Below, piece after piece: positions 1 through 22,911 of a stretch of DNA of 64,000 nucleotides (its first letter is position 1; each line of letters starts with the position of its first letter). A model generated the notes under the pieces. That model ran no database searches. It saw only the letters and a list, made by a program, of their open reading frames with translations, and was not told where the DNA came from. Location: contig NC_092561.1 in NCBI RefSeq assembly GCF_037975245.1, positions 3,951,001 to 4,015,000 on the forward strand, written 5' to 3'. The DNA comes from Apostichopus japonicus (lineage: Eukaryota > Echinodermata > Holothuroidea > Aspidochirotida > Stichopodidae). The translations under genes were made by a program, and so were the position numbers.

Positions 1-182
1 AATTGTTTCTATAGCACTCAAATTATATTTGTTATTAATTTATTATTTTCATTTTTACATTTTTGCATTGACTATGACATATAAAGTCTGAAACTGTGCC
101 TAAATTCATCTTTAAACATTGTATGCAACCAAATTATTAATCTATACTGCCAAAGTATCAATTGAATTAAGGGGACATGCTT

Positions 183-470
183 AGGTTACCCTTGCTCCCT
201 GCTACCTACCGTCACCACTTTCCCCCCACCCCAGTTTACCCCATTCCCGTTAACACACCTGTAACCTGGACACGTAAGATACTCCTAGGTTTGGTATCTT
301 GTTGGGATGCTTGGTCAGGATGAGCTTGGGTAACCCTTGCTCCTCCTGCTACCTAACGCCACCCCTTCCCCACCCCCTGTTTACCCCATTCCTGTTAACA
401 CACCTGTAACCTGGACACGTAAGATACTCCTAGGTTTGGTATCTGTTGAGATGCTTGGTCTGGATGAGCT
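183..470. repeat. Tandem duplication, two ~145-bp copies
   Basis: The block containing TAACACACCTGTAACCTGGA and GTAAGATACTCCTAGGTTTG occurs twice, at about 183-328 and 329-470, with about 90 percent identity by eye. Confidence 0.75.
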
Positions 471-764
471 GTTTGCAGCTCTTTATGATACATGTTGAGA
501 GCTGCACTTTCATTATTCTGTCGCAAAGTTCCACCACCACCTGTTGGAATCTAACAAACCAAAAACAGAAAACGCAAAATGAATTTTACTTTTGATTTGC
601 ATGTTAACTCTTGTTTTATACTTATTTCAGTCTTTGGGGATAACTAACCTGAATCTAGCCTGGACTGAGAACAAGACTCAACAACTTCTAATAGACTCTC
701 ATTTTCTATCTTACCTGTATGTTTGGCCGCTGCCTTTTAACTTCCCCTTTCCATATCTCACACT

Positions 765-1009
765 CAGGCACGTAGCCAATGGGGGGGGACGGATGGGGCA
801 ACCACCCCCTCCACCCCCCCCCCCCTTGAGCATAGTTTTTGTATTTTTTTTATGATATCGCAATTAAATTCAAAATAGAAAATGCTTAGATCTGGGAGGC
901 ATTTTCGGCCACAATTTTCTTGTACATTTCGCACCAACTCATGTTGGCGCTACGCTTAGATAGTTTGCCTACAAGCTTCGCCCCTCCCTTGACAAATTCC
1001 TCACTACGC
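765..1009. mobile_element. hAT-like MITE, degraded copy
   Basis: Begins CAGGCACGTAGCCA and shares its interior (TTGGCGCTACGCTTAGATAG, TTTTCGGCCA) with the copies at 4227 and 60286. The right terminus and the target-site duplication are eroded. Confidence 0.6.
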
Positions 1010-1139
1010 TAACACTGTTGTGTCGATGCAGAAGGAATGCCTTTTGGAAAACCGTGGCAGTACAAACGTTCATGATTGTCAGTATTCTTATAATTACGAA
1101 ACAAAACAAAAAGACCTCGCTTGGTTGTGGCATACATAC

Positions 1140-1310
1140 CTCTGTCGTTACTGACATGCTGCCAGAAATATCAACACAGAATATGATGACAGTGTCGTCC
1201 CCGCTCTCTGAACCGGGGGAAAGTACGTAAGTCATATCACCTTGAGAAGGAAGATCCACAGCCATCGTGGAGATTAGGTTTTCAAGACCACAAAATTCAC
1301 ATCTCCAAAT
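1140..1310 (-). CDS. Exon 11, second half of zinc ribbon and VWA start
   Basis: Begins IWRCEFCG (second CxxC pair, C281 and C284) and ends in VIIFCVDISGSMSVTTE, the first beta strand and MIDAS loop of a von Willebrand factor A domain. The GTATGT donor shows that coding continues, but I found no credible next exon in positions 1-1139. Confidence 0.78.
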
Positions 1311-4300
1311 CTAGTGAGGAAAAGAAAATGCATCAATTTTTACAGGTTTTTTTATTTTTTTATATTTCTTTCCTTCTTTGTAATTTTCATCTTAATCCAT
1401 ATTTGGACGATACTCTTTATCAGATCAACAAGGCTGAAGAAAATACTCTTTTTTTATTTCTTAGAATAAAACAATCCACACATTTCTTAGAAATATAAAA
1501 TGCCACATGGAAAACAGTGTAATATGTTTGAAATGAAGATTAATTTAACAGTAATATATATATACATCCCAGCATTTTTGTCAGACTGCAAACATTAAAA
1601 CAGTACTTATCAGTTACAAGTATGTACTATAGTAGTAGCCAAACCAAGAATACAGGAATATCATTTTATCCAATTATCTCACATCCTTAATTTGCTCTTT
1701 AACATCTTGTTGCTGAAAATACTGTTCACTAGTGTAAAGGTAAATTAAACTCTAGCCAAAGATCCAGTTTTCTACTGTAGGGTTGAAATTGATAGCAAAG
1801 TGTGACCTGACCTAGATAAATCCTTCTAAGAGTGGACCAGTTTCCTACTGTAGGGTAAATGTGATAGCTAAGTGTGACCTGACCTAGATAAACCCTTCTA
1901 AGAGTGGACCAGTTTCCTACTGTAGGGTAAATGTGATAGCTAAGTGTGACCTGACCTAGATAAACCCTTCTAAGAGTGGACCAGTTTCCTACTGTAGGGT
2001 AAATGTGATAGCTAAGTGTGACCTGACCTAGATAAACCCTTCTAAGAATGGACCAGTTTCCTACTGTAGGGTAAATGTGATAGCTAAGTGTGACCTGACC
2101 TAGAAAAACCCTTCTAAGAATGGACCAGTTCCCTACTGTAGGGTAAATGTGATAGCTAAGTGTGCTAAGCCTATAAACCCTTCAACAAAGAGTGGACCAG
2201 TTTCCTAATGTAGGGTTAAATGTGATAGCAAAGTGTGACCTTACCTAGATAAACCCTTCTAAGAATGGACCAGTTTTCTACTGTAGGGTTAAATGTGATA
2301 GCAAAGTGTGCTAAGCCTATAACCCTTCTAAGAGTGGAGGTTACTATGTCTCGACCCATTCTCAAGTGCAATGTATCTGTTTGCCTGTGAGTTTACCAAA
2401 GTCTCAAAACCCACTGCTCATACTTTACAAGCAAACATACTACAATACTGGCAGCAGATAAGATGAGTAAACATTGAGCAAGTTCATCAATTTATAACCA
2501 CCTGAATCAACAAAGCTCTGAAAATGTTTACCTAGACCAGCTTGAAATTATATCCTTATGATTGTTATAAACAACAATAATAGTGCTATCATGTAGGAAA
2601 TAACAAATACCAGTCTCGAGACATTAACATGTTATTACTGTTATAAACAACAATGATGGTGCTATCATACACTGTAGGATATAAAAATACCATTGTTGAG
2701 ACATTAACATGTTATTACTGTTATAAACAACAATGATGGTGCTATCATATACTGTAGGAAATAACAAATACCAGTCTTGAGCAATAACATGTTATTACTG
2801 TTATCAACAACAATGATGGTGCTATCATATAGGATGAAACAAATACCAGTCTCGAGACATTAACATGTTATTACTGTTATCAACAACAATGATGGTGGTA
2901 TCATGTATAGGATGAAACAAATAGAAGTCTCAAGACATGAACATGTTATTACTGTTATAAACAACAACGATGGTGCTGTCATATAGGATATAACAAATAC
3001 CATTTTCGGGATATTAACATGTTATTACTGTTATAAACAACAATGATGGTGCTATCATATAATGTAGGATAACTTAAGACATTGTTAACAAGAGTCAGAA
3101 CAGCAGGACATAAAATACAGAAAGTAATTCTGTAGTAAAATCCAATTCATTCTTCCTTTAATTTACTGAAATGTAAATATGATGAGTTCATTCTAAAACA
3201 ACTTATTTTGAGATCTCTCAAATGACTTTCTGCAAAGACAGTTGTCATAGATACTCAGGAAATATAACTCTATGATGGGTTAAATTGGAAATATTTAGTA
3301 GAATTAATTTTAAACTGTGATTTTGACCTAATTGATCACAAATGTGTTAATTTGTTTTCAAGTATATTAGCTGCCTTGAAGGAAGGAGCTGGTAAAGGAA
3401 GTAAAGATGCCAATTATTGCATAATATTCTATGAATATTCAACACGTATCTTATCGCAACCACAAGACAGAAACGTCTCCATTAATTAGCAAAACACTGA
3501 CATTTTAGTATCGTACCATGACTGATGCTGGGCTTTTGCATTTCCAAGATTTTTAGCTGTTTTGAGTAAAATCTCAAGTTTATTCCCGACATGTCTCAAT
3601 TTAAACTGCATTTTCTAAGTTGAATTGTTTGAGTTGTTGTCCAGATAAATGAAGACAATTGATTGGTTTTTGAATTAAATTTTAGTCTGGGCAGAATCTT
3701 TGTCAAGACTCAGATGGAATTATTGATTATGCAACATTTGTTGAGGAATGTTACCAGGAGGTGTCTTTAAGTTTTCATCAATCGCATTCTCTTTCAAGCT
3801 TTAATGTGTTTCATGAAGTTGCTGCATAGCAGTGATGAATCATAAGTCTGATTTTGGGTGAGAGAAGGGGGTTGGGGGGGGGTGGAAGTATGCTGTTATG
3901 TTCTTACCATGCCTCTTTCATCTTCTACGACATTACTAAGATGAGAGAGCATCGATGAACACCTTTCACAAGGAACTGGCTTACCCTCCACTACTTGGGA
4001 GGGCTTTGACAGGGTATCAAACTTCACTGCCACGATATTAGTATCCGCCCGCCGCACCTTCTTGGTACCTGCATGGAGAGCAGAGCAATAAACTAATGAT
4101 ATATTTGAAAGAGATGTCTAAACATCAGGAAGTACATATAAGAAGGGTTGGAACAGAAGCGCTCATTGCAATTTATGGTCGACTTATAAGATTGACTCTA
4201 TAGTCGTTAGACGAGACACAACCTTCCAGGCTCGTAGCCAGGGGGGGGGGCGAAGGGGGCAGCCGCCCACCCCCTTGTGCATATTTTTTAATGTTTTTTT

Positions 4301-7300
4301 TTTAATGTTTTTATGATATTGCTAGTATTTTCAAAAGAGAAAATGCTAAGATGCAACTTACAAGGCCTGGGAAGTGCCTGGGAGCATTTTCAGCCAAAAT
4401 TTTCCTTGTACGCTTCGCGCCAACCATGGTGGCGCTACGCTTAGATAGTTTGTAATGCCGAATCTACAGTTTCGCCCCTCCCGTGGCAAATTCCTGGCTA
4501 CATGCCTGCAACCTTCATGGTAAAGGTATCATTAAATAGAATGGTGTGACTCACCTAAACTTTTCTTTAATGCCACATAGCTGTAATCATCCTCATTTGG
4601 TTGTGATGTTCGTCTTGAAGGGGGGAGGGGTGGAGGTAATGGACCACTACTTCCTTCTGTGAAAGAAATTAAATGTATGCAAATTAATTTTTTTTTGCAT
4701 CAGAGGGTAATGCAAAACAATAAAATAATTAGAATATTGCACAAATTAAGGCAGTAAAACCCGACAAACGTGATCACCATGGGATACAGATACAGCGACA
4801 GAAGAACAGACAAAATATCACAAAATTGGTCAAATTGATTGATTGATCGAAGTTATTCAACCAGGAATTTCTAACTCAGTGGTTTGTTGTGATGGAACCT
4901 CGACATGCAGCTTACATGCTTTTCAAATGATTGAACTTGTTGAACAGCAAGGAGATGGTATCATCTGATTAAAAATCTTCCTTAAAACCTATTCAGAAAT
5001 AATTAATTAATTAATTACAATAAAAAAGGATTGAGCCTAATTTGACTGGGTCTGTTCCTTTCATTACTTAATGAAGAGTCAATAGTTAGTTAACATCAAG
5101 TTTTAGTTTTGGCAAATTATACAACCATTTAACAAATGTAATATAGCAGACTGCTTCCACCAAAAGGTCCATAACAATTTGCATATGACAATGAAACTGT
5201 TTATTTCCAACATAAAAGATAAGTACATTTTAAACAAGAATTCAATACATATAATCAAATAATCATGGTATTATATTTATTTCAATGAAAACTACCAAAG
5301 ATCTAATATGAATAGGCATCCTTGCGAACCAGTCATTTTCAGTATAAGGAACTGATTTGTGAAGAGCTAAATGATTCCATTTGAGCAAGGGTATAACAAT
5401 CTGTTGCCATGGTAACATTCAAACATAGACTAATTACTTCCTGAGAGATGAATAATTATAACTCTAATGAACCGTTGAAAGCTTATATTCGTTATAACCT
5501 GGTTCTGTCCTTCCTTCTCATATTGTTTTGACCTCAAACTTCAAAATCGTTACCTTGCCTTTATTCATAACCTAAGCCACTCACTGCTATCAGCCTATCA
5601 ATGCACAATTTTTTTCCACAAATTTTTTTCTCAATGCGATACATAGAGAAAACTTTTCTAGTTGCAATTCCGTGTAAAAGCTATTTTGAAATCCAAAAAA
5701 CTACTTGAAAGAAACTATCACAGAACCACTCATCCGTACGCTTAATTAAAACATATCTTAATTATCTACACTGCTTAAAGTACTACTCGAAAAGAAATTC
5801 CTACGGAACCATCAATCACACGTTTGAAAAATATCTGAAATATCTAGACAGCTAAAATTGATGTCTTCAGTACCTCCAACAGCATCATAGACTCTGGGAA
5901 CTTCAGTGTATACAGCTCTCTGGCCCCTGCCTGTTTTCCAGGCTGTTCCTTTCTTCGTTACCTTCTGTTTCTGAGGCATGTTAGGATTGTCATATATGGT
6001 GTCAACACCAGGTTTCTGAACTAGATTAAACCAGAAAATTTAAGAGTTATACTTTGACAAGATTTTATTTGTTGTTCTGGTAGAGATTTTAAAAGGCCAC
6101 ATTTTATGCATTATATTATTAAAACACAAACTGTTGCCTACTGTACCATGACAGTCTAAATTATCTCATCATGTTACATCAGATTCCCTACAATCACATT
6201 ATGATATGGTATCTCTCCCCCACCCCCCCCCTCCCCCAAGAATTAGCCCTTTGAAAAGGAATGAACACATGATAGTGTCATCACCAAGACAAGCTTGTCT
6301 TGTAAACAACACCAACTGTCTGTCTGTCTGTCTGTCCGTCCGTCCGTCCGTATGTATGTCTAAATAAAGACAATGATATCGCACTGTCCGACGTTCTTAA
6401 AAACATGAGACTAGTATAGCTGAATAATGTTCCAATATCCAAGATATTTGCTTGCAAGATTACACACAATAAAGAATGCTTTAAGCAAATTCAAAAGAGA
6501 ACAGTTGACACCCCCACCCCCCCCCCCCCTCTAGTCCTCTCCCTCTGCTCTCATTAAGCCTTATCGATTCACCTGGTATTAAACACAACTTTTCTTCATA
6601 AATCCAAACTATAACTCAGGCTCCCAGATGGCATTTGAAGAAGACTACCACTTTCAGATACAGTATGCAGTTTACTCAATAGATAGAGAAAAAGAAGCTC
6701 ATATCATTAATATATGATTAATATAATACAAGATCATATTATTCATGTGCATCCATTTTCAACATCCATCCACAAGTTACATGAAGCATACTTAATTCAT
6801 TGATAAATGTGACATTCATAAAAAAAAAATCTTAAAGTAAATAAGTTTGTTAGGTTAGTAACTTCTACAAGACACTGCACCAGGATATTTGCAATGTTAT
6901 TCCATTGTATTTTATACAGTATAGCAAATTACTAAGCCAAGTACATGATAGGATAAACTGATGAGTCCTAACCTTATCAACAGTCAGAGCAACTTTTTTA
7001 AATTTGCTGAGTGAGTTTACAAAATAGAATGCCTGGGAGGTAAATATTAACAATAATACTTGACTTTTGCAGAAGAAGAGATTATATAAAGGTTAGAAAA
7101 ACAGCAAGGTAAAGCAGTGGTGACAAACAGCGTCATATACACTCAATGGTGTTGTTATTAAATTGATCTGTAGCTATACAAACATATAGGTACAGCTCTA
7201 TACAATACTACAACAGAGAACAAGGCATAGTGTATTAATATGCAAAGCCACATACTGTTAGTAAGCATCATATTATACATCTGGTTATAAGTTTCAATGG

Positions 7301-10300
7301 AAATTAATTAGATAATTAGGCTAAACTAACAAGTCAATGTTGACATTAATCTATTCACATATATAATCTGTTTCGCACATCTGAACAAAGCTAACGTCAC
7401 CATCAATTGGGAATTCCCCGATATCTCCTATCTTTTCTATCTAATTAGAAGATCTGGGTGGATTTAGACCTTTTTTTATTAAATGTCCAAATGTTCAGGT
7501 AGTTCTGACAAAGTAATATATATATTGGAAAATCCTTCTCAGCTGTTCTCGACATCTAGCTAGACCTAGATATCTCCAACTTGAGTATGGAATAGTGAAT
7601 TATTAATTGGAAACGGTCCTCTAACCAATCTCATCTTACATTGAGATTAATTAAACATTTAATTTCATATCTGGTACCAATATTTTATTAGGGACTGTTC
7701 AAAATTACTTTTTTTTTACTTCCCCAGAATGGGAAGAGGGAACCCTGAAATTAGACGGTCCCTTATCTAGGTAGGCGTTTTCATCCTGTTCTCCTTTCCT
7801 CTGATATATGTTAAATCCCCCCCCCCCCCCACATTACTAAAACTAAACCTCAAAGCAAAGTACTTCAGGACTGTTAATGTAGTAACAGTTGTGTTATGAG
7901 TTAGGCCACAGAGAAAAGAGATAGCAATTTGGTGTTGTAAAGGTGAGGACAAAATTCTCTTCTAAGCATGTATGCATATAGTTGTGTTATGAGCTGGCCA
8001 CAGAGAAAAGAGATAACAAAGTATAAATGGTGTTTTGAGGGTGAGGGCAATATTCTCATATAAGCATGTATGCATATCGTTGTGTTATGAGCTACGCCAC
8101 AGAGAAAAGCAAAAACAAGGTCAAAAATGGTGTTTTGAAGGTGACAACAATATTTTCTTCTAAGCATGTATGCATATAGTTGTGTTATGAGCTAGGCCAC
8201 AGAGAAAAAAGAGAAACCAAGGTCAAAAATGTGTTTTGAAGGTGAGGGCAATATTTTCTTCTAAGCATGTATGCATATAGTTGTGTTATGAGCTAGTCCA
8301 CAGAGAAATGAGTTAGCAAAGTATAAATGGTGTTTTGAGGGTGAGAATTTATTCTCATCTCAGCATGTATGCATATCGTTGAATCAATTGCAATGGATAC
8401 AACCCACAAGCAACACCAGATGAATTTGAAGCCAGATTTAATGTTTGAAGAGAGGCGTTGATCCACATGGAGGAAGCAGGGCGAAAGCTGTTTGTTGCTG
8501 TAAAGTGATCTGGTAACTTACTTGAAAGTGGAGTGTAAATCGAAGACTGTTCACCGGGTAACTTACTCTGGAGGAGTGGTGTATAGGTCGTGTCTGGGAC
8601 TTCTGGTAAGCCAGCATTATCATAAATTTCTGTAAGAAACACAAAACAAATAAAGGTTAACTGCATATGTGAGTGTTTGGGGCTAATTAGTAGATGTTTC
8701 TGTTTATTAGATCTGTTCTTAGTCTCTGCCTTATACTTGACTTACTATATAACATCATCATGTTTTCATTATCTCAGGGATGCCAACCTCTTGACACAAA
8801 AAAAAACAGACTGGATATCCTAAAAAAAATCATATTTTGGAGAGAAAAATCAAATTTTCACGAAAACTTGACACTACCACTGGCCTGTTGGCCCCGGGCC
8901 AGTAAAATGTCAGAAAAATGTTTTACTGGTAAGAACGGGCAAGGAAAATGTTTGCTTTTTCATTAACATTTAATGAGAAAATTGTAAAGCTGCCGATTCT
9001 GCGTATTTCCCGCCCATGTAGGCTCCTTGTTCAACGTGTTTGTCAGGGTTTGGGGGGCTTACTTCTATGCGATTCAGCTTTCTTTAAAAAAAATGAAAAA
9101 TGAAAAAAAAAAAGATGAAAAATCGTGTTTTCAAGAGGCAATATCATATTATCGTATTTCACTTGTTTTATAGTACTAAATACGATAAAATCGTACTGGT
9201 TGGCATCTCTGTTACCTGCATGGGGCTCCTTGCCATTCTTTTCTACATGGTTTTCACCTGTGTTTACTTAAACCCTTCATTACTTTTCTTACATGGTCTT
9301 AAGTTATTATTTTAATTGTCTTTCTTTATTGACTTTCAATATAAGTTATGTCACATGGTGTACTTAATACCACTCCTGTATTTCTTAACTGCAAGACTCG
9401 TCCGTAACAATTTTCATTAACCTATGAACAAGTTTCTTTCGATTACATCATCTTTCAGTATCTCCTGTTTAACTCACGTGTTTCTTGACCTGGTCTCTGG
9501 CCACCCGATGATGCTCCGAATACCGCATTATCGTAAGCTAAAGCAAATCAATAAAAAACGTTACAGTATGAGCAAATTACTATATGAATGAAAAGATAAT
9601 CAGTTTTGTTTGCAAAGAAACTATAGTACACTATAAGAGACAGAATTCAGGAGAACTTTATTAATTGTAAACAGCAGACATTTAAAGAAAAAAGGAGTAC
9701 ATTTATTTCCTTTGATTATTTCATCATTGATTTGCACATGTGTAAATCATGTGACTGACATTAATATGAAAAACTGATCACTTTTGTTTGCACAGGAACT
9801 ATAGTACTTTATAAGAGACAGAATTCAGGAGACCTTTATTAATTGTAAAGAGCAGCCATTTGTAACATCACAACAATAAAAAGGAGTGAATTTATGTCCT
9901 TTGATTATTTCATCATTGATTTGTACATGTGTAAATCATGTAGTAACTGACATTGAAACATTACACAAAGGGTATATCAAACTGTGTAGTAATTCTGAAC
10001 AAAGTCAAGAGGACATCAAGTACTCCCATTGAGGGAGTCAGAACTAAAGATAAGTACCTGTACATCAAAATATCTTCAACAGAACTTTCATGTTTCATCA
10101 TGCTCTTTTGTCTGATTCTGTAGATCAGAGATTCATTGACTCAATTGTATACTTTATTCAAAGCAGTGTTATGACCTATGACCTTTTATTAAATGACAAG
10201 GACACATTTGATTGCTTTAAAGCTACTTATCAAATTGATTGGGAAAACTTAAAAATTGTCAATATTAGCCTAAATTTTATTATCATATGAAGCTAAATAA

Positions 10301-11388
10301 TTGCTAATAATATTCAAAAGTATTTTTATGGAGTTTCTGTATATATTTTATATATATGGAGCTGTCTGTTAGGTTGACTATAATGTATGTGATTCTACAA
10401 TACCACACACATACAGCTGTCTGTTAGCTTGACTATCATGTGTGTGATTCTACAATACCACACACATACAGCTGTCTGTTAGCTTGACTATCATGTGTGT
10501 GATTCTACAAAACCACACACATACAGCTGTCTGTTAGGTTGACTATAGTGTATGTGATTCTACAATACCACACACATACAGCTGTCTGTTAGGTTGACTA
10601 TAATGTATGTGATTCTACAATACCACACACATACAGCTGTCTGTTAGCTTGACTATTGTGTGTGCTTCTACAATACCACACATATACAGCTGTCTGTTAG
10701 CTTGACTATCATGTATGTGATTCTACAATACCACACACATACAGCTGTCTGTTAGCTTGACTATCATGTACGTGATTCTGCAATACCACACACATAGCTA
10801 TCTGTTAGCTTGACTATCATGTATGACGGTGTGGTGGAATTATTAATAGTTGTCCAATTCTTCTGAGCCATGACCATACTTGATAAGTTTTGTGAACTAA
10901 TGACCATAACTTCCTTTAAGTTGAATTGGAGTTCAACTGTTCACATAATCTACTGTACAGTACTTACTTCTTTGTGGAGATCTTGGTTCACCGTTAGAAC
11001 TTGCACCAAAGATGGCATTGTCGTAGACTTCTGTGAAAGTGAAAACATTAGTCTGAATCAGAATCAATGTATCATGTTACAATAGGTAAATACAAACAAT
11101 CAAACATAATGTTTAGATATGAAATGAAACTGAGGAAAATCAATGGTGAACAATGCCAGACACAATAACTTTATATTAGGGGCTCTACTACAACCCTAGT
11201 CAAGCAATATATATATATATATATATATATACAGTATATATATATTTATATAGAGTTGGTTGGTTGGCGTCTATCTTGGCGCAGAGTGCTCATGGACAGA
11301 GCGGAATATATGTTCAACTCAGTTGTCTGATGATCGCTCAATGCGTGAAACTCTGAGTAAAACTACTAGTGTTCCACTAGTCTCAACA

Positions 11389-11438
<50 letters not shown>

Positions 11439-14400
11439 CTGTATTACTGAGGGCCTTCTAAGTACAAAGTTTGTCCTATACTCTAGATTTACAACCTGAT
11501 CAATGCCAAATGTTGTTGTTAATTCGGTAATGACTTTATTGGGTCATCCATTTGCAGGGCTAAGAGCACAAGATTCCTGAAGAAGTCTGTTGACAAACTT
11601 GTAGTAAATGCAAGAACTAATAATTATGTAGAATAGGATCACTAAACCCAGTCAAATCAGACCTAAATTGTTGTTAAACCCTAATAATGATTTCCTAGCT
11701 GGGGAACAGCAAGAAAATATATCATTCTTTATGTCAAACACACACCTCACAGTGAATCATATGACTTACGGTTTGCAACACTGTTGGGTTGGACTCGACC
11801 TTTATGATCGCCACGGAAACCAGGATTGTCATAGTCAGCTATGGAGGAGAAAGATGGAAACGACCAACTGTCAGTGTATAAATCAAATGTTATTATAATT
11901 CAGTTGACCAATGAAAACTTCTGTATACTGTCACATGCAAACTATTATCTAAAATTGACCAATGTCAATCAAAAGGAGAGCTTTGAATTTACATAAGAGT
12001 TAAACTCAACAGTAAATCAGTACTAGATCATATGTACTGTAGGTCACCAGGATCGGTATTGGCATGTGAAATATTATATTGCAACCAGTGCATACAATAA
12101 CTAATTTACAATTCAACAGTACAGCAGTTCCCAATCTTGAGTGGTTTTCCCCAAGATCTATTTATAGTAAATACTTTGAAAGATCTGATAGCTGTAAGCT
12201 GTGTAAGAAGTACAGATGGTAATTAAGTTTTCATATCTTTATCTAATTCTAGATGATAAAGTCAAAGAGATATCATTGTAATTCATTTTAGTACATAGGT
12301 GTAAAGGTTATTTACAACTATAACTACCATGTACAACCGCGTGTCAAGTGACATGAACTAAACAAATGCTATTAACCACGGTATAATATAATACTGTTAA
12401 GCACAGTATAATATAATGCTGTTAAGCACAGTATAATATAATGCTGTTAACCATGGTATAATTAAATGCTATTCTATGTATAATTTAATGTCAACCAGGG
12501 TATAACTAATTAATGCCATTAACCAGGGTGTAATTTAATGCTATTAACCATTGTATAATTTAATGCTATTAATCATGGTATAATTTAATGCTATTAACAA
12601 GGGTATAATTTGATGCTATCAACCAGGGTGTAATTTAACACTATTAACCAGGATACTATTTAATGCTATATTAACCAGGGTATCATTTAATGCTATTAAC
12701 CAGGGTATCATTTAATGCTATTAACCAGGGTATCATGTAATGCTATTAACCAGGATATCATTTTATGCTGTTAACCAGGATACTATTTAATGCTATTAAC
12801 CAGGGGATCATTTAATGCTATTAACCAGGATACCATTTAATGCTACTAACCAGAGTATCATTTTATGCTATTAAAAAGGATATAATATTCACAGTGGTAT
12901 CATATAACGCTATTAACGGGAGTGTAATTTAATACTGTTAACCAGGGTATATATATTTAATGATATAAACCATTGATATCATTTAATGCTATTAACCAGG
13001 ATTAACCAGGGTATCATAATTTGCAGTGTAAATTTTGTGTAGTAGTTTTGCAGTCTCTTGTAAAATACTATATGGTTTCTGTGTATAAAAACTGTTCTAC
13101 AAGTTTGCAGTTGTGTGTACAGTACATTAGCAACTAAGTTGTCCACTTTATACCAGACAATTTACTTCCGGTTAACAGACATGTAGCACTATACTGCACT
13201 GTACAAATATCAGTAACTCAAAACCTTATATAGACATCAAAAAATAGTTATATACAGTATCTCAATACAAGCTGAATTATTTTCTTATCAAGAAATAAAC
13301 CAGACTTTAGATATTTAACAACACAGTGATGTTAGGGAATAATTCATATTCCAATTCCTGGCTTGGCCAAAATGTAACTTTTTTTCTTCTCACATTACCT
13401 AGCTATGTGATGCATGCCAAACACAGTGGTTCATTTCATTGTTGAATTGATATCCATATATGAATGCTGCTAATAACAGACAATACAGTCAAGGTTAACA
13501 AGCTGAGGTAAGGCACACAACTATTGTCCAGGCTGCAATATGAATGGAGTAGTGTGCCATGCAAACTTACTGTATGCCTGTGTGCTATTTCTATTGTGTT
13601 CTTTTGAAAAGTGATTCCTTGGCAAGCCAAATTAACACAGTATTCAAGCATTACATATAGAATGGTGGGCTCATAATTGACGCACTTAAGGAGTTGATGC
13701 TGTTTGCTATGCTCTGAGCCTCTAAGCTCAGACAGGTCAGGTCCCAGAGAGTAGTAGTATCATGTTGAGGTAATTTTGGTTATTTTTAGGGAGTTAGATT
13801 TCCAAATGCCAGAATTTTCGAAATTTCAGACACAGTTAATTTTATTGGTGAACAAATATTAAACTTCTTATAACTGCTAAGTATAAAACTTTGATATCAT
13901 AAAAAAAATACAAAAAATATGCTCGAGGGGGGAGGGGCGGTCCCCCCTTTGCTCCCCCTTTGGCTATGGCAAGCGTTTAGAAATCTTGTAGGAAACAGGG
14001 CAAATTGTAACCCAGTGAACTCATATTGATGTGGATCATATATATATGATTGTACGTACTTACACTCATACACAAGAGATGTACAGACATTATTTTCTAT
14101 TTATATATAGCCAAACAAAAAAACTATGCCACCAAATATTGGAGGGGGGATAATATATACTATATCTCCCCACCTAAAATATTGGGGGTGGACATGTCCC
14201 CCCCGTCCCCCCATGATCGCCACCCATGTGAGAGAACACTTCATATGACAGACTCTGTGTTCTTCCATCACTACAGGTAAAACTATTGTAGCAGCTTTTA
14301 GTGTCATTGAATGCAGTCCAGACTCAAGCCTATGACAATTCAAAGGTGATCAATGGACTTAATTGCAGCTATCTGTGATGTTTTCCCAACTATAGAGATA

Positions 14401-17400
14401 ATGACATACTGTTGTAACAAGGACTTGAACTGAGCCAGGATAAAAACAATTAATTTTAAATTAATTTACTGGTTAAAAAGTTTGCTTATTTAGTCGAACA
14501 ACAAAATGTAGAGAACTCCATTATTGTTATTTGGTAATAACATAAATATAAAAGCAGTGGAAACTTTTAGGAGAGGGTTTCAGTTCTGCTTTACCGGATC
14601 CAACTGGTGGGGGAGGGGGGAGCGGGATTCAACTGGACCGTTGCAAGTATCATGATTGGGGGATATGACCCTCATGCCCCCTGCCCCCCCCTTGGTCCCA
14701 CCACTGTATAAAAGATACCAAAAAGTTAGGAGGAACACCCAATATAGTTATATGATGCCGGAGCCTTTACCACCATGCAGAAGGCTTACACTGTGCATGT
14801 ACTTGTAAAGACCAACCTTATTTACATACATTTAATCAGAGAACAACCATGCATTTATTGCAGTCAATTCTACACTGTAAGAAGATAAGCTTTCATTCAC
14901 ATCGTTTCTATTGTAATCAAGATTCTTTCAAAACAAAAACAAGGAAATTAATCAATGATCTAGATAAATTTGGCCTATCTTGTTGAAATGTACACTTGCA
15001 ACTTCAAGTTAAATTAGCAAAAACGGGGAATTTTAGAAGTGGATATAATCAGAGATCTACATTTAATTTCGTATCAACAAACGTATTAGAAACAGTGAAC
15101 AGAGCAGAACTATTTTCCGATGCAATACATGGAGGAAGCTATGCAATCGAACAACAAATATACATGTCTGCCAAAAGGTTTGGGTGTGTAAGTATCAAGC
15201 ACAGGTAAAAATTACTATAGGAAATACTGTTTCCTTATTTATAAGCTTGCCCCTTACTGAAAGTCTAAAGGAGGAAGTATCAACCTACAGTACTAGATCT
15301 CAAATGTCTGAACAATTGTTACTATCATTTCTTCTAAAGGGAAATACTGCACTGGTGAGGGGAAGAAAAAAATGATGTATGTGTACCAATGTGTGGGAAA
15401 TAGCAGAATATTAAATTATCTGAGTAGAGGTTCAAGTGAAGAATGAGTGGAATTACTTCTTGAAATAATCCAAACAGTTTGATCAGCAATTCACAGATGG
15501 CCCAACACCTCCGACAATACTACCATTATTCTGTCTCAACTATAAACTTCAAAATGACGATTTATAGTTTAGTCTGTGAAATGACTTCTTCTGAAATCGT
15601 TTGAATCGCTGTAAACGATGAAAGGATGTTAACTGAATGAATGGAAAAATGGAACAAGACGATAAAAGGAAACAAAAATCGATCTACTTTAACGACATTA
15701 AACGAATGTTTGTACGACAGTACCTGAAGCCGAACTTCCTGGGATTGCCACAGGCTGTAAACCGCCGTACAGTGCTACATGGATGAAAATTAGTGAATAG
15801 CGATTAAATATGAAAAGATGGTGAAATAGTCAGAAAAATGAGATGGTTAAAATGAAAGAGAATGTGAATTACTGGTTAAGTTCACACAAAGACATATAAA
15901 GAAAGAAACTTATAGAGTACTGTACTTAAAGCAATGGAAACCCAATCCTGATGGCCACGTAACTAATCCCCCTCACCCCGCCCCCCCCCCCCCTTCTCTT
16001 CTCCTTATTGAGATGAAAGTAATGAAACACTGACAACATTTAAAGAAGAAACTTAAAGAGTACTGTACTTAAAGCAAACAATGGACACCCATTAACACAT
16101 TCCAGGTTGCCACATAACTACCGACCCCCCCCCCCCCCTTCTCTTCTCCTCATTGAGATGAAACACTGTCCTACATGTACTGTACTATTCCCTCCCGTCC
16201 AAAAGGTAGTAGTCCCACCAGCAACCTCCCCCTCCCCCCAACAGTCTGTAAATAGTAGATCAGTTTACATTGATAACCATCAGATATATATCAATCCCCT
16301 GTGAGGAAGAATAGTAAAAATGATACCAAAAAATATAACTGGAAAACATCTGGCACTGATCAATTTAAATTATTAATAATTTGAGGTGAAGTTTTGCTCA
16401 ATTAGTGTATACTGATTCAAAAGTGTGACTCGTGGCTCGTCAGAGCACATGACAGGCTGAACAGTGTTAATTTGCATTTTCTTAACTGCCACAGGGTCGG
16501 TATAACCAGTCATGTCCAAGCAAGTCAAATGGAATACAGTGCACCAACTCATTATATTACTCTACAGCTGTAGCTAATATAAAACCAATTAAAAGTGTAA
16601 AACAATACAAAATTATAGCTTCATGGTACAGTAATAGGTCGTCTTTAATAATTCCAACTCAAAATTGGTTTGGTTGCCATAGCCACAAACTACAGCCTAG
16701 CTGGCAAAAGCTAGTGTCAGTTCCTCAATGAAAAAGATATGAAGACATAGTTAAACTCAACTAAAACTGAAAGCAAACTTAGACAAACTTCAGGGCAGCT
16801 TGGAAACCAAATTTTGATCTGCATTGTCTTGGTTTTGATCAATAAGTATGATTGTTGAATCCTACAGCAAGTCTAAACCAATGTTTACCAAGTAACAACA
16901 ACATGGACTCACAATAAAAAAATGTACAATACTTGTAAATGATAATTACTGTAGATAAAAGATATTAGAATTATGAAATAGACTATTACAGTCCCAACTA
17001 TATTTTGTAATATACAGAGCATGCCTTTGTGCCAAACATATTATAATACTAAGCTACCATAGGTACTGTACTAGCAACATGTTAACCACTGCCTGGTGTT
17101 AACACAGTCTGTTTATTTAATAACTTAACCATTGCTTGCATATCGTACCACGCTGTAGGCTATGTCTACATCAGCAGTTTCAGCCAGGAACTGTTTTATG
17201 ATCATATTACAATGCAGATATTATTTGCATAAATTGCAACTTAATGGCAAAGGTAGAAAGACTTACCGTTATTCACCGATAGGCCTTGATATAGGGCAAA
17301 TCTAGTGAAAAGTAGAAAAATAAATAACAGGCTTGAGCAGTCAAATTATGCTAAAAAGAAGTTTATTTGAGGCAGAATTTTGACTAGAGCACAGCCATTG

Positions 17401-18505
17401 TTGATTCCATCTTTGTTGATCGGGTAGATTTTGAATTAAGCCATACGATATTGTTTTCAAATTCTTGTAAAGTTAAAGAGTCATGTGCATACATTTTTCA
17501 TGTACCGAATCAGAATGTTGAATAGTTGCATATATTATTAAAAGGTCAGAAACGTACAAACAATGATTACAAGTTCCCCTCAAAAGTACAGTACAATCCA
17601 GTGTTATTTACAAAGTTCTTATCAACAGAACATCAATTTCATAGTATGTAAGTACTACAATGATCACATTTTGAAGTTAAAGGTTTATGTTCAGTCAACA
17701 TGAGCACATTACACATAAATACCTTCCTAACAGATTAACTTCACAATCTTTTTTAAGTTTTGAAGTTCTACAGGTACAGGTTTATACTGTACTGTGCTGT
17801 AGGTATCACATACACAATGCACAGTTCAAAGTCAAAATTATATATGCAAAGCACTACAGTATCTCCCACAATTTGTGTGATAAAGTGATTCCACTAAAAG
17901 TTAAAATATATAAAACGATTCTTTTAGACCCTGGGGATCTACTTCCTTTTAAGAAGAGTCCATTGTGTAGGACGGTCCTGTTTTATTTATAACTGAATTA
18001 ATGGCTTGTGTTTGCTTGCATCACACAATGTTCAACATACAGTATTTTAATTGGTTTTTTGGTTTATTGGTTGTTAGTAAACTAATTTACCTCAAGAGTG
18101 ATATAATGACTATAGTAGATGCAGTCCAGCATGTACTTGAGCAGGGCAGAATCTCTTGATTTGGCAAGTCACACCAATTTTTTATTATTATTTTTTTGGT
18201 GGGGGGGGGATAAGAATTTCTTCATACAAGGTATATTTATGGAAAGTCACAACTTATGAAAAAAAAATCCTTAAATATAATTGGCCTTGGTATATGACAA
18301 TGTAATGATAGAAGTGGAACAGATACTGCAGATATTTTACATTTTGTTAAGAAACTTGCTGGGGAGGAGTGAACAATTAAATTTATTAAATTAAGTAGGC
18401 TACTGTACTCCTACAGTATACTTACGCCCCCTCCATGTAACTATCATCAATCTCTTCTTCATCAGATTCATCATAATTTAAGATATGGGTGGAAGCAAAC
18501 TCCAT
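1140..18505 (-). CDS. VWA/zinc-ribbon protein resembling circularly permutated Ras protein 1, multi-YDN N-terminus (3' end off window)
   Basis: Eleven exons with consistent GT-AG borders and phases give 334 residues and then leave the window: 18505-18426, 17301-17267, 15774-15724, 11838-11770, 11030-10968, 9537-9478, 8629-8567 (or to 8522), 6020-5874, 4656-4555, 4068-3908, 1310-1140. In order: an acidic N-terminus; YDN motifs at Y58, Y81, Y101, Y122 and Y150; a proline-rich segment (PLPPPLPPSRR) followed by DDYSYVAL; a zinc ribbon with C257, C260, C281 and C284; and the first strand of a VWA domain with MIDAS residues D324, S326 and S328 (DISGSMS). A Sec23/24-like zinc finger followed by VWA is the layout I know from proteins annotated as circularly permutated Ras protein 1. 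No GTPase motif is visible here. The start is the first ATG of the acidic exon; an in-frame upstream ATG at 18631 would add 42 residues. Role inferred: tyrosine-phosphorylated scaffold. Family name is from memory. Confidence 0.72.
1761..2338. repeat. ~73-bp minisatellite, about 8 copies
   Basis: The unit contains GGACCAGTTTCCTACTGTAG and GTGTGACCTGACCTAGATAA. The central copies are nearly identical and the edge copies diverged. It lies within the intron between exons 10 and 11 of the zinc-ribbon/VWA gene. Confidence 0.85.
2560..3075. repeat. ~78-bp minisatellite, about 7 copies
   Basis: The repeating unit includes TGTTATAAACAACAATGATG and GACATTAACATGTTATTAC. Copies differ by small indels. 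Confidence 0.85.
3908..4068 (-). CDS. Exon 10, first half of zinc ribbon
   Basis: Encodes 53 residues ending CERCSSMLSHLSNVVEDERGM. It carries the first CxxC pair (C257, C260) of a Sec23/24-type zinc finger and leaves the frame in phase 0. Confidence 0.75.
4227..4508. mobile_element. hAT-like MITE with 8-bp target-site duplication
   Basis: A 282-bp element with inverted termini (CAGGCTCGTAGCCAGG at the left, CCTGGCTACATGCCTG at the right), flanked by CAACCTTC at 4219-4226 and 4509-4516. It has no coding capacity. An 8-bp duplication and CAG-type ends fit non-autonomous hAT elements. Confidence 0.82.
4555..4656 (-). CDS. Exon 9, proline-rich SH3 ligand and YSYVAL motif
   Basis: Encodes GPLPPPLPPSRR, which contains PxxPxR (PLPPSR, class II SH3-ligand consensus), followed by NEDDYSYVALKKSL. 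Phase 1-1, with a CACAG acceptor and a GTGAGT donor. Confidence 0.7.
5874..6020 (-). CDS. Exon 8, YDN motif 5 and basic linker
   Basis: Encodes 48 residues with TIYDNPNMPQ, a lysine-rich stretch, and then RAVYTEVPRVYDAVG. That gives three further tyrosines in acidic or hydrophobic context. Phase 1-1, with a TCTAG acceptor and a GTACTG donor. Confidence 0.7.
6316..6360. repeat. (CTGT/CCGT)n microsatellite
   Basis: A simple tetranucleotide run, CTGT changing to CCGT and then ATGT. Confidence 0.85.
7880..8385. repeat. ~95-100-bp tandem repeat, 5 copies
   Basis: Copies begin near 7888, 7981, 8079, 8179 and 8280 with GTTGTGTTATGAGC and include CACAGAGAAAAG and AAGCATGTATGCATAT. The array stops about 140 bases from exon 7 of the zinc-ribbon/VWA gene, on its intron side. 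Confidence 0.82.
8522..8629 (-). CDS. Exon 7, YDN motif 4, with two in-frame donors
   Basis: Starts IYDNAGLPEVPDTTYTPLLQ. A GTAAGT donor follows position 8567, and a second GTAAGTTACC donor follows 8522. Both leave phase 1, so either a 63-nt or a 108-nt exon is readable. The extension encodes a second copy of a YTPL-x-SKLP peptide. Confidence 0.65.
9478..9537 (-). CDS. Exon 6, YDN motif 3
   Basis: Encodes (T)YDNAVFGASSGGQRPGQET, phase 1-1. Its strong similarity to exon 5 (YDNA-V/I-FGASS-x-G) supports origin by exon duplication. Confidence 0.75.
9585..9957. repeat. Tandem duplication, two ~185-bp copies
   Basis: AAGAGACAGAATTCAGGAGA and GATTATTTCATCATTGATTT recur in both copies (about 9585-9763 and 9764-9957). 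Confidence 0.8.
10360..10828. repeat. ~55-bp minisatellite, about 9 copies
   Basis: The unit contains CAGCTGTCTGTTAGCTTGAC and GATTCTACAATACCACACAC. It sits in the intron just below exon 5. Confidence 0.88.
10968..11030 (-). CDS. Exon 5, YDN motif 2
   Basis: Encodes VYDNAIFGASSNGEPRSPQR. It is nearly the same motif and length as exon 6, phase 1-1, with a CACAG acceptor and a GTAAGT donor. Confidence 0.75.
11205..11440. mobile_element. Single-arm relative of the palindromic element at 26.4 kb
   Basis: Flanked by (TA)n runs. It contains TTGGCGTCTATCTTGGCGCA, then CAGTTGTCTGATGATCGCT and ACTACTAGTGTTCCACTAGT. The same modules occur at 26433-26690 in the opposite orientation, where the second module is present as an inverted pair. 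Confidence 0.65.
11770..11838 (-). CDS. Exon 4, YDN motif 1
   Basis: Encodes a DYDNPGF motif (Y58) followed by a basic linker. It is phase 1-1, with a CATAG acceptor and a GTAAGT donor. Confidence 0.7.
12360..13015. repeat. ~24-28-bp minisatellite, about 25 copies
   Basis: Variants of TTTAATGCTATTAACCAGGG plus TATCA, AT-rich and increasingly degenerate at the left edge. Lies in the 3.9-kb intron between exons 3 and 4. Confidence 0.85.
13880..13975. mobile_element. Fragment of the CAGGC...GTAGCCAGG MITE family
   Basis: The AAAAAATATGCTCGAGGGGG to CCCCCTTTGGCTATGGCA stretch matches one end of the 60286-60579 element. The rest of the element is missing. Confidence 0.4.
15724..15774 (-). CDS. 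Exon 3
   Basis: Encodes (A)LYGGLQPVAIPGSSAS, bounded by a TGTAG acceptor and a GTACTG donor. It is the first of seven consecutive exons that are phase 1 at both ends. Confidence 0.65.
15905..16175. repeat. Imperfect duplication with poly-C tracts
   Basis: AGAGTACTGTACTTAAAGCA and the following poly-C and TTCTCTTCTCC...TTGAGATGAAA occur twice, at about 15915-16020 and 16055-16165. Confidence 0.65.
17267..17301 (-). CDS. Exon 2 (35-nt microexon)
   Basis: This microexon encodes FALYQGLSVNN between a CACTAG acceptor and a GTAAGT donor. The phases (2 in, 1 out) fit both neighbours. Its ALYQGL resembles ALYGGL in the next exon, which suggests they are duplicates. Confidence 0.65.
18426..18505 (-). 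CDS. Exon 1 (coding) of zinc-ribbon/VWA gene
   Basis: Encodes residues 1-26, beginning MEFASTHILNYDESDEEE. It is acidic and ends at a strong GTAAGT donor in phase 2. The reading frame stays open upstream to 18631, so the true start or a 5'-UTR acceptor may lie in 18506-18631. Confidence 0.65.
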
Positions 18506-20273
18506 CTTGGTGTGTTGATGACCATGGGCACAAACCAATTCTAAAGTTGAAGATGCTGCTAATCTTGAAATGACAATTTCAAAAAATTCTACATTTCTAT
18601 TGTTCATAAGTGAAGAGTGATTTAATGCCAAGTATATATAGTCCTTGTATGCAAATTAAGTAAAATATATCATCAAACTGCACATAATGGCCGGGTCATT
18701 ATTTTAATGTTATGTTCTTCTGAAGAAGAAATTTGCTTTCATTGTTATTTTTTTTATGGAGTGTAAATGCAAGAATATTATATTAATATTCATGTTACTT
18801 AATGATTATATAGGCCTTGTCCCAGTCTTCTTAATCCCTAAGCATGAGTGTTTTTCTTCATAAAGAAAGACAACTATATGCAAATTGATTTTCTTCAATT
18901 AATATAGTAACCATTACAATACAGGGCTCATTTTTAAGAAAATTTTGCCTTAATATTTGGTTGTCATAAAGATTTTTGGGTTGCCCAAATGAACGCACTC
19001 GGATTATAAAAATGGCGCCCTTGCACGAGAGCCATAAGTAATACTGAAATGTATCGATTTAGCCTTGTACAGGTGAGTACCGAGGCTGCGCAGGCCTACA
19101 GTAGTCTATCGGCCCGAGGCTTGAGTCTTACTCTCAAGGAATAGTCTTACGGGGGTTGACAAATCTTGGACAGAACTGCAGTGCAGAGTTACAGACATTT
19201 TAAGTGGTGTATGACATCATGTACTGTACGTGATGTGGAAATTCTCTGGTAGTGAAAAATTATTTCCGAATTAATTTCTGATCATTTCCAGAGACAGAGG
19301 ATAGGCCCAGGGTATACAGCATGTACATTACAGCAACATAAATGAGCATGCGTAATGCCCGCATGCACAGTATAATACTGCATACTTGCGTGCAGCTGTG
19401 AGAAAGAAAGCAACCTGGTGATCACGGCCACCAGAGTCTGTACTCTGTACTGTTCCAAGTACATATGGTACTGCACGTAACCATTAGTTCTACAGTATGC
19501 ACGTAACAGCTAAAGCGTAGGATTTTCCCCTCATTACGGAATGTACCAAAATGTGATTTATTTCTTAAGTTGTTTCTAAATATGAATTGAGGGCGATACC
19601 AAAAAGCTACTATAATTTTTTTCAGAGCAGATTTTTATTTTAAAGAATAGGGATTTTCCAAATTTTGTTTGAAGACTAGAACACTTAGGGCAAATATATA
19701 CAAGTCATCCGTCAGACAACCTAAGCAGGGTTTTAGGTTGTCAGACGTGATTTGTTGTAGTCTCGGACGATCAGACAACCGTTATCTTTGAGCCCTGCAA
19801 TACCAAATGGTATGTGATGTGCAGGCCTGGGCTACTGCATAGGCTTAGCACAAATAGGCCAGTTGTCAAAGTACAGTATGGTAGTCCTAGTTAATACCAA
19901 TATGGCAATAGTAAGGCTTTTACTTTAGAGTTAGTCCAGGCTATAGACTCAAGGCCTTTCTAATTAAAATATGGCTGGTTTAACATTTGCTAATATGTAC
20001 ATGGCTTAGAAATAACGTCGGGTGCATATGTAGAAAATGAATCGGTACACTGTTCCGAATAAAGTTGACAATATTTTATCTTGAATATTGTATGACTATT
20101 GCCTAGGAAGTGCACATCCCTGTGCTTTCCTAGGGGCAACTAACTTGTGCACAAATCATGTGGAGTACAACAATATAGAATATGTAGGTAACACACTACT
20201 GTAGACTACTTTTCACACTACACTTCTCGTAACGTAAAATAGGAACAAATTTAAAGTGATGCCGATGACTTAC

Positions 20274-21462: not shown

Positions 21463-22687
21463 CATTTTAAGAATGGATTTTACACTGGTGTACAGGAATG
21501 TATCGATGAAACTTTCTTTGAATCGCGTGGAAGGATAGATGTACCATCTTCAAGTGTAACGGTTCGCTCGATAGACTGAATTGTAGTTAAGACAAGATTG
21601 GGGGATTCTTACACAGTCTTTTAATTTACAGTCAGTATTGCAAGGTTTGGAACACTGCTAAGTTCGGACACCCCTAAGAAATACACAATTTCACCATGAC
21701 AACCTACAGCATGCGCCAATTTCACGAAAAACTACAAAGCTACAGTTATTTTCTCTCCAAAGTAACCTGTGTGCAAGTATGTACTTACATATTTGTCAAT
21801 AAAAGGAAGTTATAGTTTTGGGGTGTTTTAAGGCTTAGGTGTCTGAAATTCGCAGTGTCCATGCTACAGGTTGATCGAGTAATTTTAATTGTAAGTTTGT
21901 GAGAGTCGATACACTGTCTTCAAATATATAATAGTTGGTTGAATAAATCAAATTAAATTAGACTGATGTTTATTAAAAAGACTGATTCTGATTGTCAATT
22001 TAAAAGACCAATAATGTGGATTTTGTGGACATAGGTAGATTCAAGCGAAGCAATACGTACAGTGCATGTGTTGAAGATGGTTTAACAGTGTGACCAGCAT
22101 ATTGTTAACCAAAAGAAGGTTGGATGAGGGTGTTTGGGAATGGGTTCTGTTGATATGCTCGCACAATACGCTGCCATTTTAATTATGCTATCAGCCGCCT
22201 AATTGTTTCCTCCCTACCCTCCTAACAAAATAAACAGCTCTTATTCCTTGCCTCATTTTTCTGTGAATTTCTTGTTCCCAAGCCAATGCTATTCACTGAT
22301 TCACCCATGAAGCACCAACCCATCCTAACAATCCATTACCTGATATTTCTAACCTTCATAATATAACTCTACTCCTACCCACAATAATGTGCTCTTTTCG
22401 TCATATATAAAGTGCTTTACCGCCATGACGGTAACATGGCGAAATTGCACTAGCGGAAAGTACTGATGGCAGGATGACACAGGCCGAAATCCATCAAACT
22501 TGCTTGGGCTTAACTTTTGCACATATAGTTTCTACATTTCAATATTGCCATACACATAAAAACAGAGCTGCTATGTTAATTTAATTTAATTTTTTTCAGT
22601 CACTATCAAAACTTACGTTAACCATGAAATAGCAATAATTTACCAGTTTTGATTTCATCTTACAGATTGTTAAATCTATACCTCACT

Positions 22688-22911
22688 ATGGGTCTGTTAC
22701 CTGTTGGACCCCGCACAGCCCATGTGTCTGCCAGTTATGGACCAGATGCTGACAACATGAAGTTCTACTCTACAACATATGCTGCCTCCTATGCCACAGA
22801 GCCATTTGAACCAAGATTAGGAAAACACATCGGAACTGGTTACCAATCAAATTTTCGACCCGGGGTTTATTACAGCCAGCGGATAGATGAACTTGACAAT
22901 CCAGCCATAGG
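22688..22911 (+). CDS. SAXO4: SAXO4 exon 1 (first coding)
   Basis: Residues 1-74. It contains the family signature blocks MKFYSTTYAASY and GTGYQSNFRPG. The exon begins at 22666 after TTACAG, with 22 nt of 5'-UTR before the ATG. Confidence 0.88.

What the first reader, a model, noticed from the sequence alone, without database searches (positions are those of the whole stretch)
5874..11838. Exon array encoding a ladder of YDN motifs
Five consecutive exons each carry Y-D-N-(A/P) in a similar place (Y58, Y81, Y101, Y122, Y150; spacing 20-28 residues), and all are phase 1 at both ends, so they can be duplicated or skipped without breaking the frame. Y-x-N is the Grb2 SH2-docking consensus once phosphorylated. 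The next exon supplies a class II SH3 ligand and a YxxL-like motif. Together this looks like a modular phosphotyrosine scaffold on a zinc-ribbon/VWA protein. I know of no description of this.
Basis: partly seen in the sequence, partly recalled or inferred. Interest (0 to 1): 0.75.

Follow-up and report, generated by a model that had tools for sequence, protein, structure and literature searches.

The report
Tyrosine-motif exon ladder in CPRas relative
An animal gene related to an odd Ras family carries, where its sister genes have the Ras switch, a chain of small skippable exons each encoding the same tyrosine motif, which looks like a docking ladder for signalling proteins, though no experiment has shown it.

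Summary
Five consecutive minus-strand exons (5874-11838) each encode Y-D-N-(A/P) and are phase 1-1. A scan by splice signals, phase and Y(D/E)N finds four of the five plus one poor candidate in the whole window.

Beyond the window I extended the model to 783 aa: tyrosine-rich tail, Sec23/24-type zinc ribbon, VWA/Sec23-trunk region. The tail has 15 tyrosines in 238 residues against 9 in the other 545. Thirteen of the 15 are YDN(A/P) or Yxx(L/V); 0 of 200,000 shuffles match that.

New: the gene is a relative of the CPRas family (circularly permuted Ras, zinc finger, VWA). Five other loci in the genome match its VWA half. The four with upstream sequence carry Ras motifs in permuted order and no ladder. 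The window gene shows no Ras domain; the ladder sits in its place.

A phosphotyrosine docking scaffold is the best reading. Grb2 is only one possible partner. No transcript, phosphorylation or orthologue data were available.

The parts
18426..18505 (-). E1, start exon MEFASTHILNYDESDEEEIDDSYMEG, phase 0 in / 2 out
   Evidence: four sister loci start MEFGSKFVYL; donor only 6 of 9 matches
17267..17301 (-). E2, YQGL motif, phase 2 in / 1 out
15724..15774 (-). E3, YGGL motif (with E2: YxxL-x6-YxxL), phase 1-1
   Evidence: donor 6 of 9
11770..11838 (-). E4, ladder exon 1: DYDNPGF, phase 1-1
10968..11030 (-). E5, ladder exon 2: VYDNAIFGASS, phase 1-1
   Evidence: related to E6
9478..9537 (-). E6, ladder exon 3: TYDNAVFGASS, phase 1-1
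   Evidence: related to E5
8522..8629 (-). E7, ladder exon 4: IYDNAGL plus YTPL; two in-frame donors 45 nt apart (short form ends at 8567), long form adds a second YTPL
5874..6020 (-). E8, ladder exon 5: IYDNPNM plus YTEV and YDAV, phase 1-1
   Evidence: weak donor GTACTG
4555..4656 (-). E9, proline-rich SH3-type ligand PLPPPLPPSRR and YSYVAL, phase 1-1
3908..4068 (-). E10, first half of Sec23/24-type zinc ribbon (PCERC)
1140..1310 (-). E11, second half of zinc ribbon (WRCEFC) and start of VWA domain (DISGS); the gene continues beyond the window as E12-E22

Best explanation
The gene encodes a relative of the CPRas family that lacks the Ras domain. Its C-terminal part (Sec23/24-type zinc ribbon plus VWA/Sec23-trunk region) is a folded body. 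Its N-terminal 238 residues form a flexible tail of tyrosine motifs. Shown here at sequence level: exon structure, motif repetition, domain content, no detectable Ras domain, and sister genes with a cpRAS domain in that place. Inferred: the protein is cytosolic; tyrosine kinases of Src/Abl type phosphorylate the tail, helped by the PxxPxR segment; the pYDN sites dock SH2 adaptors of Grb2/Grb7 or Crk type; the Yxx(L/V) sites dock other SH2 proteins. Because E3-E9 are all phase 1-1 and E7 has two in-frame donors, splicing or exon duplication could change the number of sites without breaking the frame.
For: Exon model with consistent phases over 22 exons. Ladder beyond chance. Tyrosines 15/238 in the tail against 9/545 elsewhere; 13 of 15 tail tyrosines against 4 of 9 others fit YxN or Yxx(LIVMF). 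E5 and E6 share YDNA(I/V)FGASS although their silent sites are saturated (pS 1.03, pN 0.19 over 12 codons), and their flanks of about 500 bases a side show no similarity at E 0.01. Tail lower in FILVMW (19% against 29%). Pfam on the 783-aa model: Sec23_trunk 2.4e-9, VWA_2 7.4e-7. Precedents: p130Cas with 15 YxxP motifs that bind Crk SH2 when phosphorylated (PMC2689226, passages); Grb2 SH2 pY-X-N-X; a peptide with a YDN core binds the Grb7 SH2 domain (PMC2131756, passages).
Against: No transcript, phosphosite or binding data. The class 'YxN or Yxx-hydrophobic' was chosen after seeing the sequence. The +5 hydrophobic residue (F, F, F, L, M) is not needed by Grb2 or Crk. Asp at +1 is not the best Grb2 residue, and the YDN peptide did not bind Grb2 SH2. 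No orthologue could be compared: close-relative scans of viral and prokaryotic contigs found none and no eukaryotic collection was open. Disorder, signal peptide and membrane segments were not predicted with a program. Kinase preference is recalled, from no call.
Confidence: 0.6

Rival explanations
1. The tail is an unphosphorylated array of short linear motifs: Yxx(L/V) would be clathrin-adaptor sorting signals and the YDN(A/P)x(F/L/M) units would bind one unknown partner that reads the +5 hydrophobic residue.
For: Eight of the ten non-YDN tyrosines of the tail are Yxx(L/V); +5 hydrophobic in 5 of 5 ladder exons; the body resembles Sec23/24 coat proteins.
Against: Sorting signals normally sit in tails of membrane proteins (recalled), and I noticed no transmembrane stretch in the 783-aa model (by eye, no predictor run). 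YDN(A/P) is not YxxPhi.
Confidence: 0.17
2. The ladder is the residue of exon duplication with no selected signalling role; the repeated YDN is inheritance, not function.
For: E5 and E6 are clear copies; the introns are full of tandem repeats, so duplication is easy here.
Against: Silent sites between E5 and E6 are saturated while the protein is kept; the other exons share only the motif core, and the non-YDN tyrosines are also non-random.
Confidence: 0.15
3. The exon model is wrong in part: some ladder exons are cryptic or used only in rare isoforms.
For: E1, E3 and E8 donors are weak; no transcript evidence.
Against: The 22 exons join in a consistent frame; the scan recovers E4-E7; sister genes have a similar start.
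Confidence: 0.08

Closest known systems
CPRas proteins (cpRAS-VWA type; Elias and Novotny 2008, PMC2430557, parts 1-3 of 4 read)
   Same: Four-cysteine zinc finger upstream of a VWA/Sec23-trunk region; sister genes in this genome carry the permuted Ras domain and have a similar MEF(A/G)S start
   Different: No Ras domain found in the window gene; a tyrosine-motif ladder and proline-rich exon occupy that position. Published CPRas are about 840-970 aa, this model 783
cpRAS-less zinc finger/VWA proteins (noted for Dictyostelium, Entamoeba, Lottia, Capitella, Strongylocentrotus and ciliates in PMC2430557)
   Same: Zinc finger and VWA half without cpRAS
   Different: The paper calls them a group of their own, apart from CPRas. 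No tyrosine ladder is mentioned in the parts I read, and I had no sequences of them
p130Cas substrate domain
   Same: Flexible region with many repeated tyrosine motifs; E4 and E8 are YxxP sites
   Different: 15 YxxP repeats on an SH3-headed scaffold; no zinc ribbon or VWA; three of our five are YDNA, not YxxP
Grb2-docking adaptors LAT, LAB, LAX
   Same: Several Grb2-SH2 docking sites in one tail (PMC3291652, search listing only; that these are YxN sites is recalled)
   Different: Those are transmembrane lymphocyte adaptors
PECAM-1 cytoplasmic tail
   Same: Tyrosine motifs in a tail of eight alternatively spliced exons, with exon 14 needed for SHP-2 binding (PMC5664058, passages)
   Different: Ig-domain receptor with ITIMs, unrelated protein

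Membership tests
CPRas (cpRAS-VWA) | Circularly permuted Ras domain, order G3-G4-G5-G1-G2 | tested here: not met
   No G1 or G3 pattern in window 1-22600, L009 or L010 on the minus strand; the same patterns found both motifs in 4 of 4 sister loci with upstream sequence, a good control. One search did show two G4-like and two G5-like strings in non-exonic sequence, read as chance. Pfam frame scans of 1-9999 and 9900-19898 gave no Ras, but they also missed the zinc ribbon and VWA that are there, so they are weak evidence
CPRas (cpRAS-VWA) | Zinc finger with four cysteines upstream of VWA | tested here: met
   PCERC...WRCEFC; zf-Sec23_Sec24 9.5e-5, below Pfam's own cut-off; 31-36% identity to the zinc-ribbon exons of 5 of 5 sister loci. 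The sister exon itself matched no Pfam family
CPRas (cpRAS-VWA) | VWA / Sec23-Sec24 trunk region in the C-terminal half | tested here: met
   Sec23_trunk 2.4e-9 and VWA_2 7.4e-7, both above cut-off
cpRAS-less CPRas relatives | Zinc finger and VWA half without any cpRAS | tested here: met
cpRAS-less CPRas relatives | Groups in a tree with the cpRAS-less set of other species | not tested
   No sequences from other eukaryotes were available
Sec23/Sec24 (COPII coat) | Beta-sandwich, helical and gelsolin domains after the trunk (recalled definition) | tested here: not met
   None listed by Pfam at E up to 0.1 on the 783-aa model; by eye one C-terminal stretch (LPFQVQIS...LRLIT) recalls Sec23, untested
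Phosphotyrosine docking scaffold | Several copies of an SH2-type tyrosine motif in a flexible segment | tested here: met
   (sequence level only; flexibility judged by composition)
Phosphotyrosine docking scaffold | Phosphorylation and SH2 binding in cells | not testable with these tools
   needs experiment
ITAM | YxxL/I-x(6-8)-YxxL/I (recalled) | tested here: inconclusive
   YQGL-x6-YGGL at residues 31-44 over the E2/E3 junction; 3,783 of 200,000 shuffles with tyrosines fixed also have one

The most novel reading that the evidence does not exclude
A CPRas-family gene has exchanged its built-in Ras-like GTPase for an exon-encoded phosphotyrosine ladder. If the ladder recruits Grb2-Sos or Crk-C3G, the protein would now call in activators of Ras-family GTPases instead of carrying one. 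The number of docking sites would be set by exon choice.
Probability: 0.25. Interest if true: 0.75.

Novelty: new variant of a known kind. Interest (0 to 1): 0.52.

Why it matters
CPRas proteins and their cpRAS-less relatives are scattered over eukaryotes, and Elias and Novotny (2008) left their function open. The ladder is the first concrete hint I know of that one member works in tyrosine-kinase signalling, and it gives testable peptides. It also offers a natural case where docking-site number is laid out as separate symmetric exons, useful for asking how the valency of a phosphotyrosine scaffold evolves.

Tried and rejected
A leftover Ras domain in the long introns: rejected on the pattern scan (with as positive control). 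That scan did list two G4-like strings (window 9788; L009 7712) and two G5-like strings (window 7076; L010 6071); none has Ras-like context by eye. The Pfam frame scans gave seven sub-cut-off matches to other families and no Ras, but also failed to see the zinc ribbon and VWA exons, so I give them little weight.

The SVNNALYGGL / SINNALYHGI similarity between E2-E3 and two sister loci: dropped. The match had E = 5.0, and in the sisters it lies in a stretch I could not read as an exon.

Weak Pfam matches of the tail, VCX_VCY (0.048) and SCIMP (0.17), both below cut-off: treated as noise. SCIMP is a tyrosine-phosphorylated adaptor (recalled), so I mention it.

Flanks of the ladder exons as a sign of recent duplication: none found. 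The long hits (E4 with E5, E6 with E7) are my overlapping extracts; one 30-base hit at 83% (E6 with E7) lies beside that overlap.

E1 homology to the sisters' first exon: suggestive only. Between 49 and 108 of 5,000 shuffles reach the observed score, depending on the sister.

Scans for relatives in viral contigs and genome contigs confirmed none. I did not run structure prediction: its rule asks for proteins read letter for letter from the DNA, and this one is spliced. Own-genome searches for PF04811, PF04810 and PF00071 did not complete. Literature searches for the ladder: one search returned one paper, on Grb7; two searches returned none; the 20 of 2,749 papers listed held neither YDNP nor YDNA as a word.

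Full report
What is there. The window lies in a 671.6-Mb genome of 35 contigs (C1:3951001-4015000). The intron-rich genes, one of them PPP1R32, suggest an animal; the species is not known to me. On the minus strand a gene starts at 18505 and runs off the left edge. I defined exons E1-E11 inside the window and E12-E22 beyond it (from stretches fetched). Acceptors are AG, donors GT, and the 22 exons join in a consistent frame to a 783-aa model (768 aa with the short E7). E22 is the last exon I assigned; I did not establish the stop codon.

The ladder. E4-E8 each encode YDN(A/P), at residues 58, 81, 101, 122 and 165 (150 in the short form). Each is phase 1-1, as are E3 and E9. A scan that knew only splice signals, phase 1 and Y(D/E)N found five acceptors in the whole window on both strands; E4-E7 are four of them, and the fifth (9063-9215) has a poor pyrimidine tract. 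E8 was missed for its GTACTG donor. In 200 Markov sequences of the gene region the mean was 0.03 and the maximum 2. Around the tyrosine the five read DYDNPGF, VYDNAIF, TYDNAVF, IYDNAGL and IYDNPNM. The constant parts are Asp +1, Asn +2, Ala/Pro +3 and a hydrophobic residue at +5.

The rest of the tail. The 238 residues before E10 hold 15 tyrosines, the remaining 545 hold 9. Thirteen of the 15 are YDN(A/P) or Yxx(L/V); the exceptions are Y11 and Y23. With tyrosines fixed and other residues shuffled the mean is 3.6, and 0 of 200,000 reach 13. I chose this class after looking, so the figure is descriptive. YQGL-x6-YGGL (E2/E3) fits the ITAM spacing, but 3,783 of 200,000 shuffles have one too. In the long form of E7 two YTPL motifs lie 12 residues apart. 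E7's two donors lie in an internal repeat that includes the splice site. E9 adds PLPPPLPPSRR.

Selection. E5 and E6 are copies. Over 12 codons they differ at 8.8 silent and 5.2 replacement positions (pS 1.03, pN 0.19), so silent sites are saturated while YDNA(I/V)FGASS is kept. For the other nine pairs, over six codons, pN is 0.14-0.36 and pS 0.35-1.26; these windows are very short and contain the shared motif by choice.

The body and the family. Pfam on the 783-aa model gives Sec23_trunk (2.4e-9) and VWA_2 (7.4e-7) above their cut-offs, and VWA (8.3e-5), zf-Sec23_Sec24 (2.5e-4) and VWA_CoxE (0.019) below theirs. Solved Sec24 chains match weakly (0.007-0.012). This is the arrangement that Elias and Novotny described for CPRas proteins, a permuted Ras domain followed by a four-cysteine zinc finger and VWA, and for relatives lacking cpRAS, which they saw as a separate group (PMC2430557, parts 1-3 of 4 read).

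Sister genes. The 349-residue query matched only this gene in its own genome (8 of 8 matches at E up to 0.001). Three of its own exons (E2, E3, E6) were not found that way either, so short ladder exons elsewhere would be missed. The 434-residue C-terminal query gave 20 matches at E up to 1, all 20 scored candidates: 10 in this gene and 10 in five other loci, best 38-45% identity per locus, two on C10 (19.04 and 19.09 Mb) and three on C8 (18.51, 18.62 and 18.68 Mb) (lower bounds by the tool's own statement). I fetched 20 kb at each. In four of five a DTAGQEE (G3) exon lies upstream of a GSGGVGKS (G1) exon with TIE(D/E)SF, and both lie upstream of a zinc-ribbon exon related to ours. In the two read further, NKSD and SAK motifs lie between G3 and G1, giving the published order G3-G4-G5-G1-G2. 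Four Ras pieces from three loci match Pfam Ras (9.5e-11 to 5e-6); a sister zinc-ribbon piece matched nothing. These four show no YDN(A/P) string upstream of the zinc ribbon; single Y(D/E/M)N strings occur. The fifth locus (18.62 Mb) was cut just above its zinc ribbon, so neither Ras nor ladder could be tested there. The four sisters whose start is visible begin MEFGSKFVYL; ours begins MEFASTHIL, a modest similarity.

No Ras in the window gene. The G1 and G3 patterns, which found both motifs in those four sisters, find neither in window 1-22600, L009 or L010 on the minus strand; two G4-like and two G5-like strings occur outside the exons. Pfam frame scans also gave no Ras, but they missed the zinc ribbon and VWA too. 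The ladder thus occupies the place of the Ras domain, between a probably shared start and a shared body. Whether this gene lost cpRAS or descends from the separate cpRAS-less group is not settled.

How it probably works. Shown: the motifs, their modular exons, their excess over chance, the body. Inferred: phosphorylation by Src/Abl-type kinases and docking of SH2 adaptors. For Grb2, pY-X-N-X is enough, but Leu/Val +1 and Val/Pro +3 bind better (PMC3787023, passages). Two sites are YxxP, the Crk type that p130Cas carries 15 times (PMC2689226 and PMC12071665, passages). A cyclic unphosphorylated peptide with a YDN core binds the Grb7 SH2 domain and not that of Grb2 (PMC2131756, passages). So the partner is open. 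Alternatively spliced exons carrying tyrosine motifs have a parallel in the PECAM-1 tail (PMC5664058, passages). Passages of PMC4046983, on chicken BG genes with many tiny tail exons and ITIMs, show another exon-modular tail.

Judgement. The added fact, that the ladder stands where sister genes carry a Ras-like GTPase, raises the interest. The lack of any orthologue or expression evidence keeps the score moderate.

Noticed in passing
genome C1:3945154-3945198 (L009), outside the window: A further small phase 1-1 exon (E18, 45 nt) carries a sixth YDN (VLYDNKGGTTFFQTE), in the C-terminal half and without Ala/Pro at +3.
   Followed up: partly
L009:512-1135 (minus strand): A tandem array of roughly 59-bp units (read by eye), each repeating the acceptor site and first bases of exon E20; only the last copy continues into the full exon.
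   Followed up: no
window 22628-22912 and 30004-30318, + strand: Exons of a PPP1R32 gene (Pfam 2e-31 and 6.8e-7), head to head with the ladder gene.
   Followed up: partly
window 40658-42693: 57-bp minisatellite, 35.7 copies, 97% matches, open on the minus strand as a 423-aa frame of a 19-residue repeat; probably an artefact of a unit divisible by three.
   Followed up: no
window 44387-45550, - strand: 388-aa open frame with one YDN; no Pfam match at E up to 0.1.
   Followed up: no
genome C8 18.51-18.68 Mb and C10 19.04-19.09 Mb: CPRas-type genes occur in local clusters (three and two loci) with very similar copies by eye, suggesting recent tandem duplication in this species.
   Followed up: partly
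window 8522-8629, - strand: Two in-frame splice donors 45 nt apart in an internal repeat; the longer form adds a second YTPL.
   Followed up: yes
window 24742-25026, + strand: Weak Urb2/Npa2 match (8.6e-4, below Pfam's cut-off) in a 95-aa open frame.
   Followed up: no
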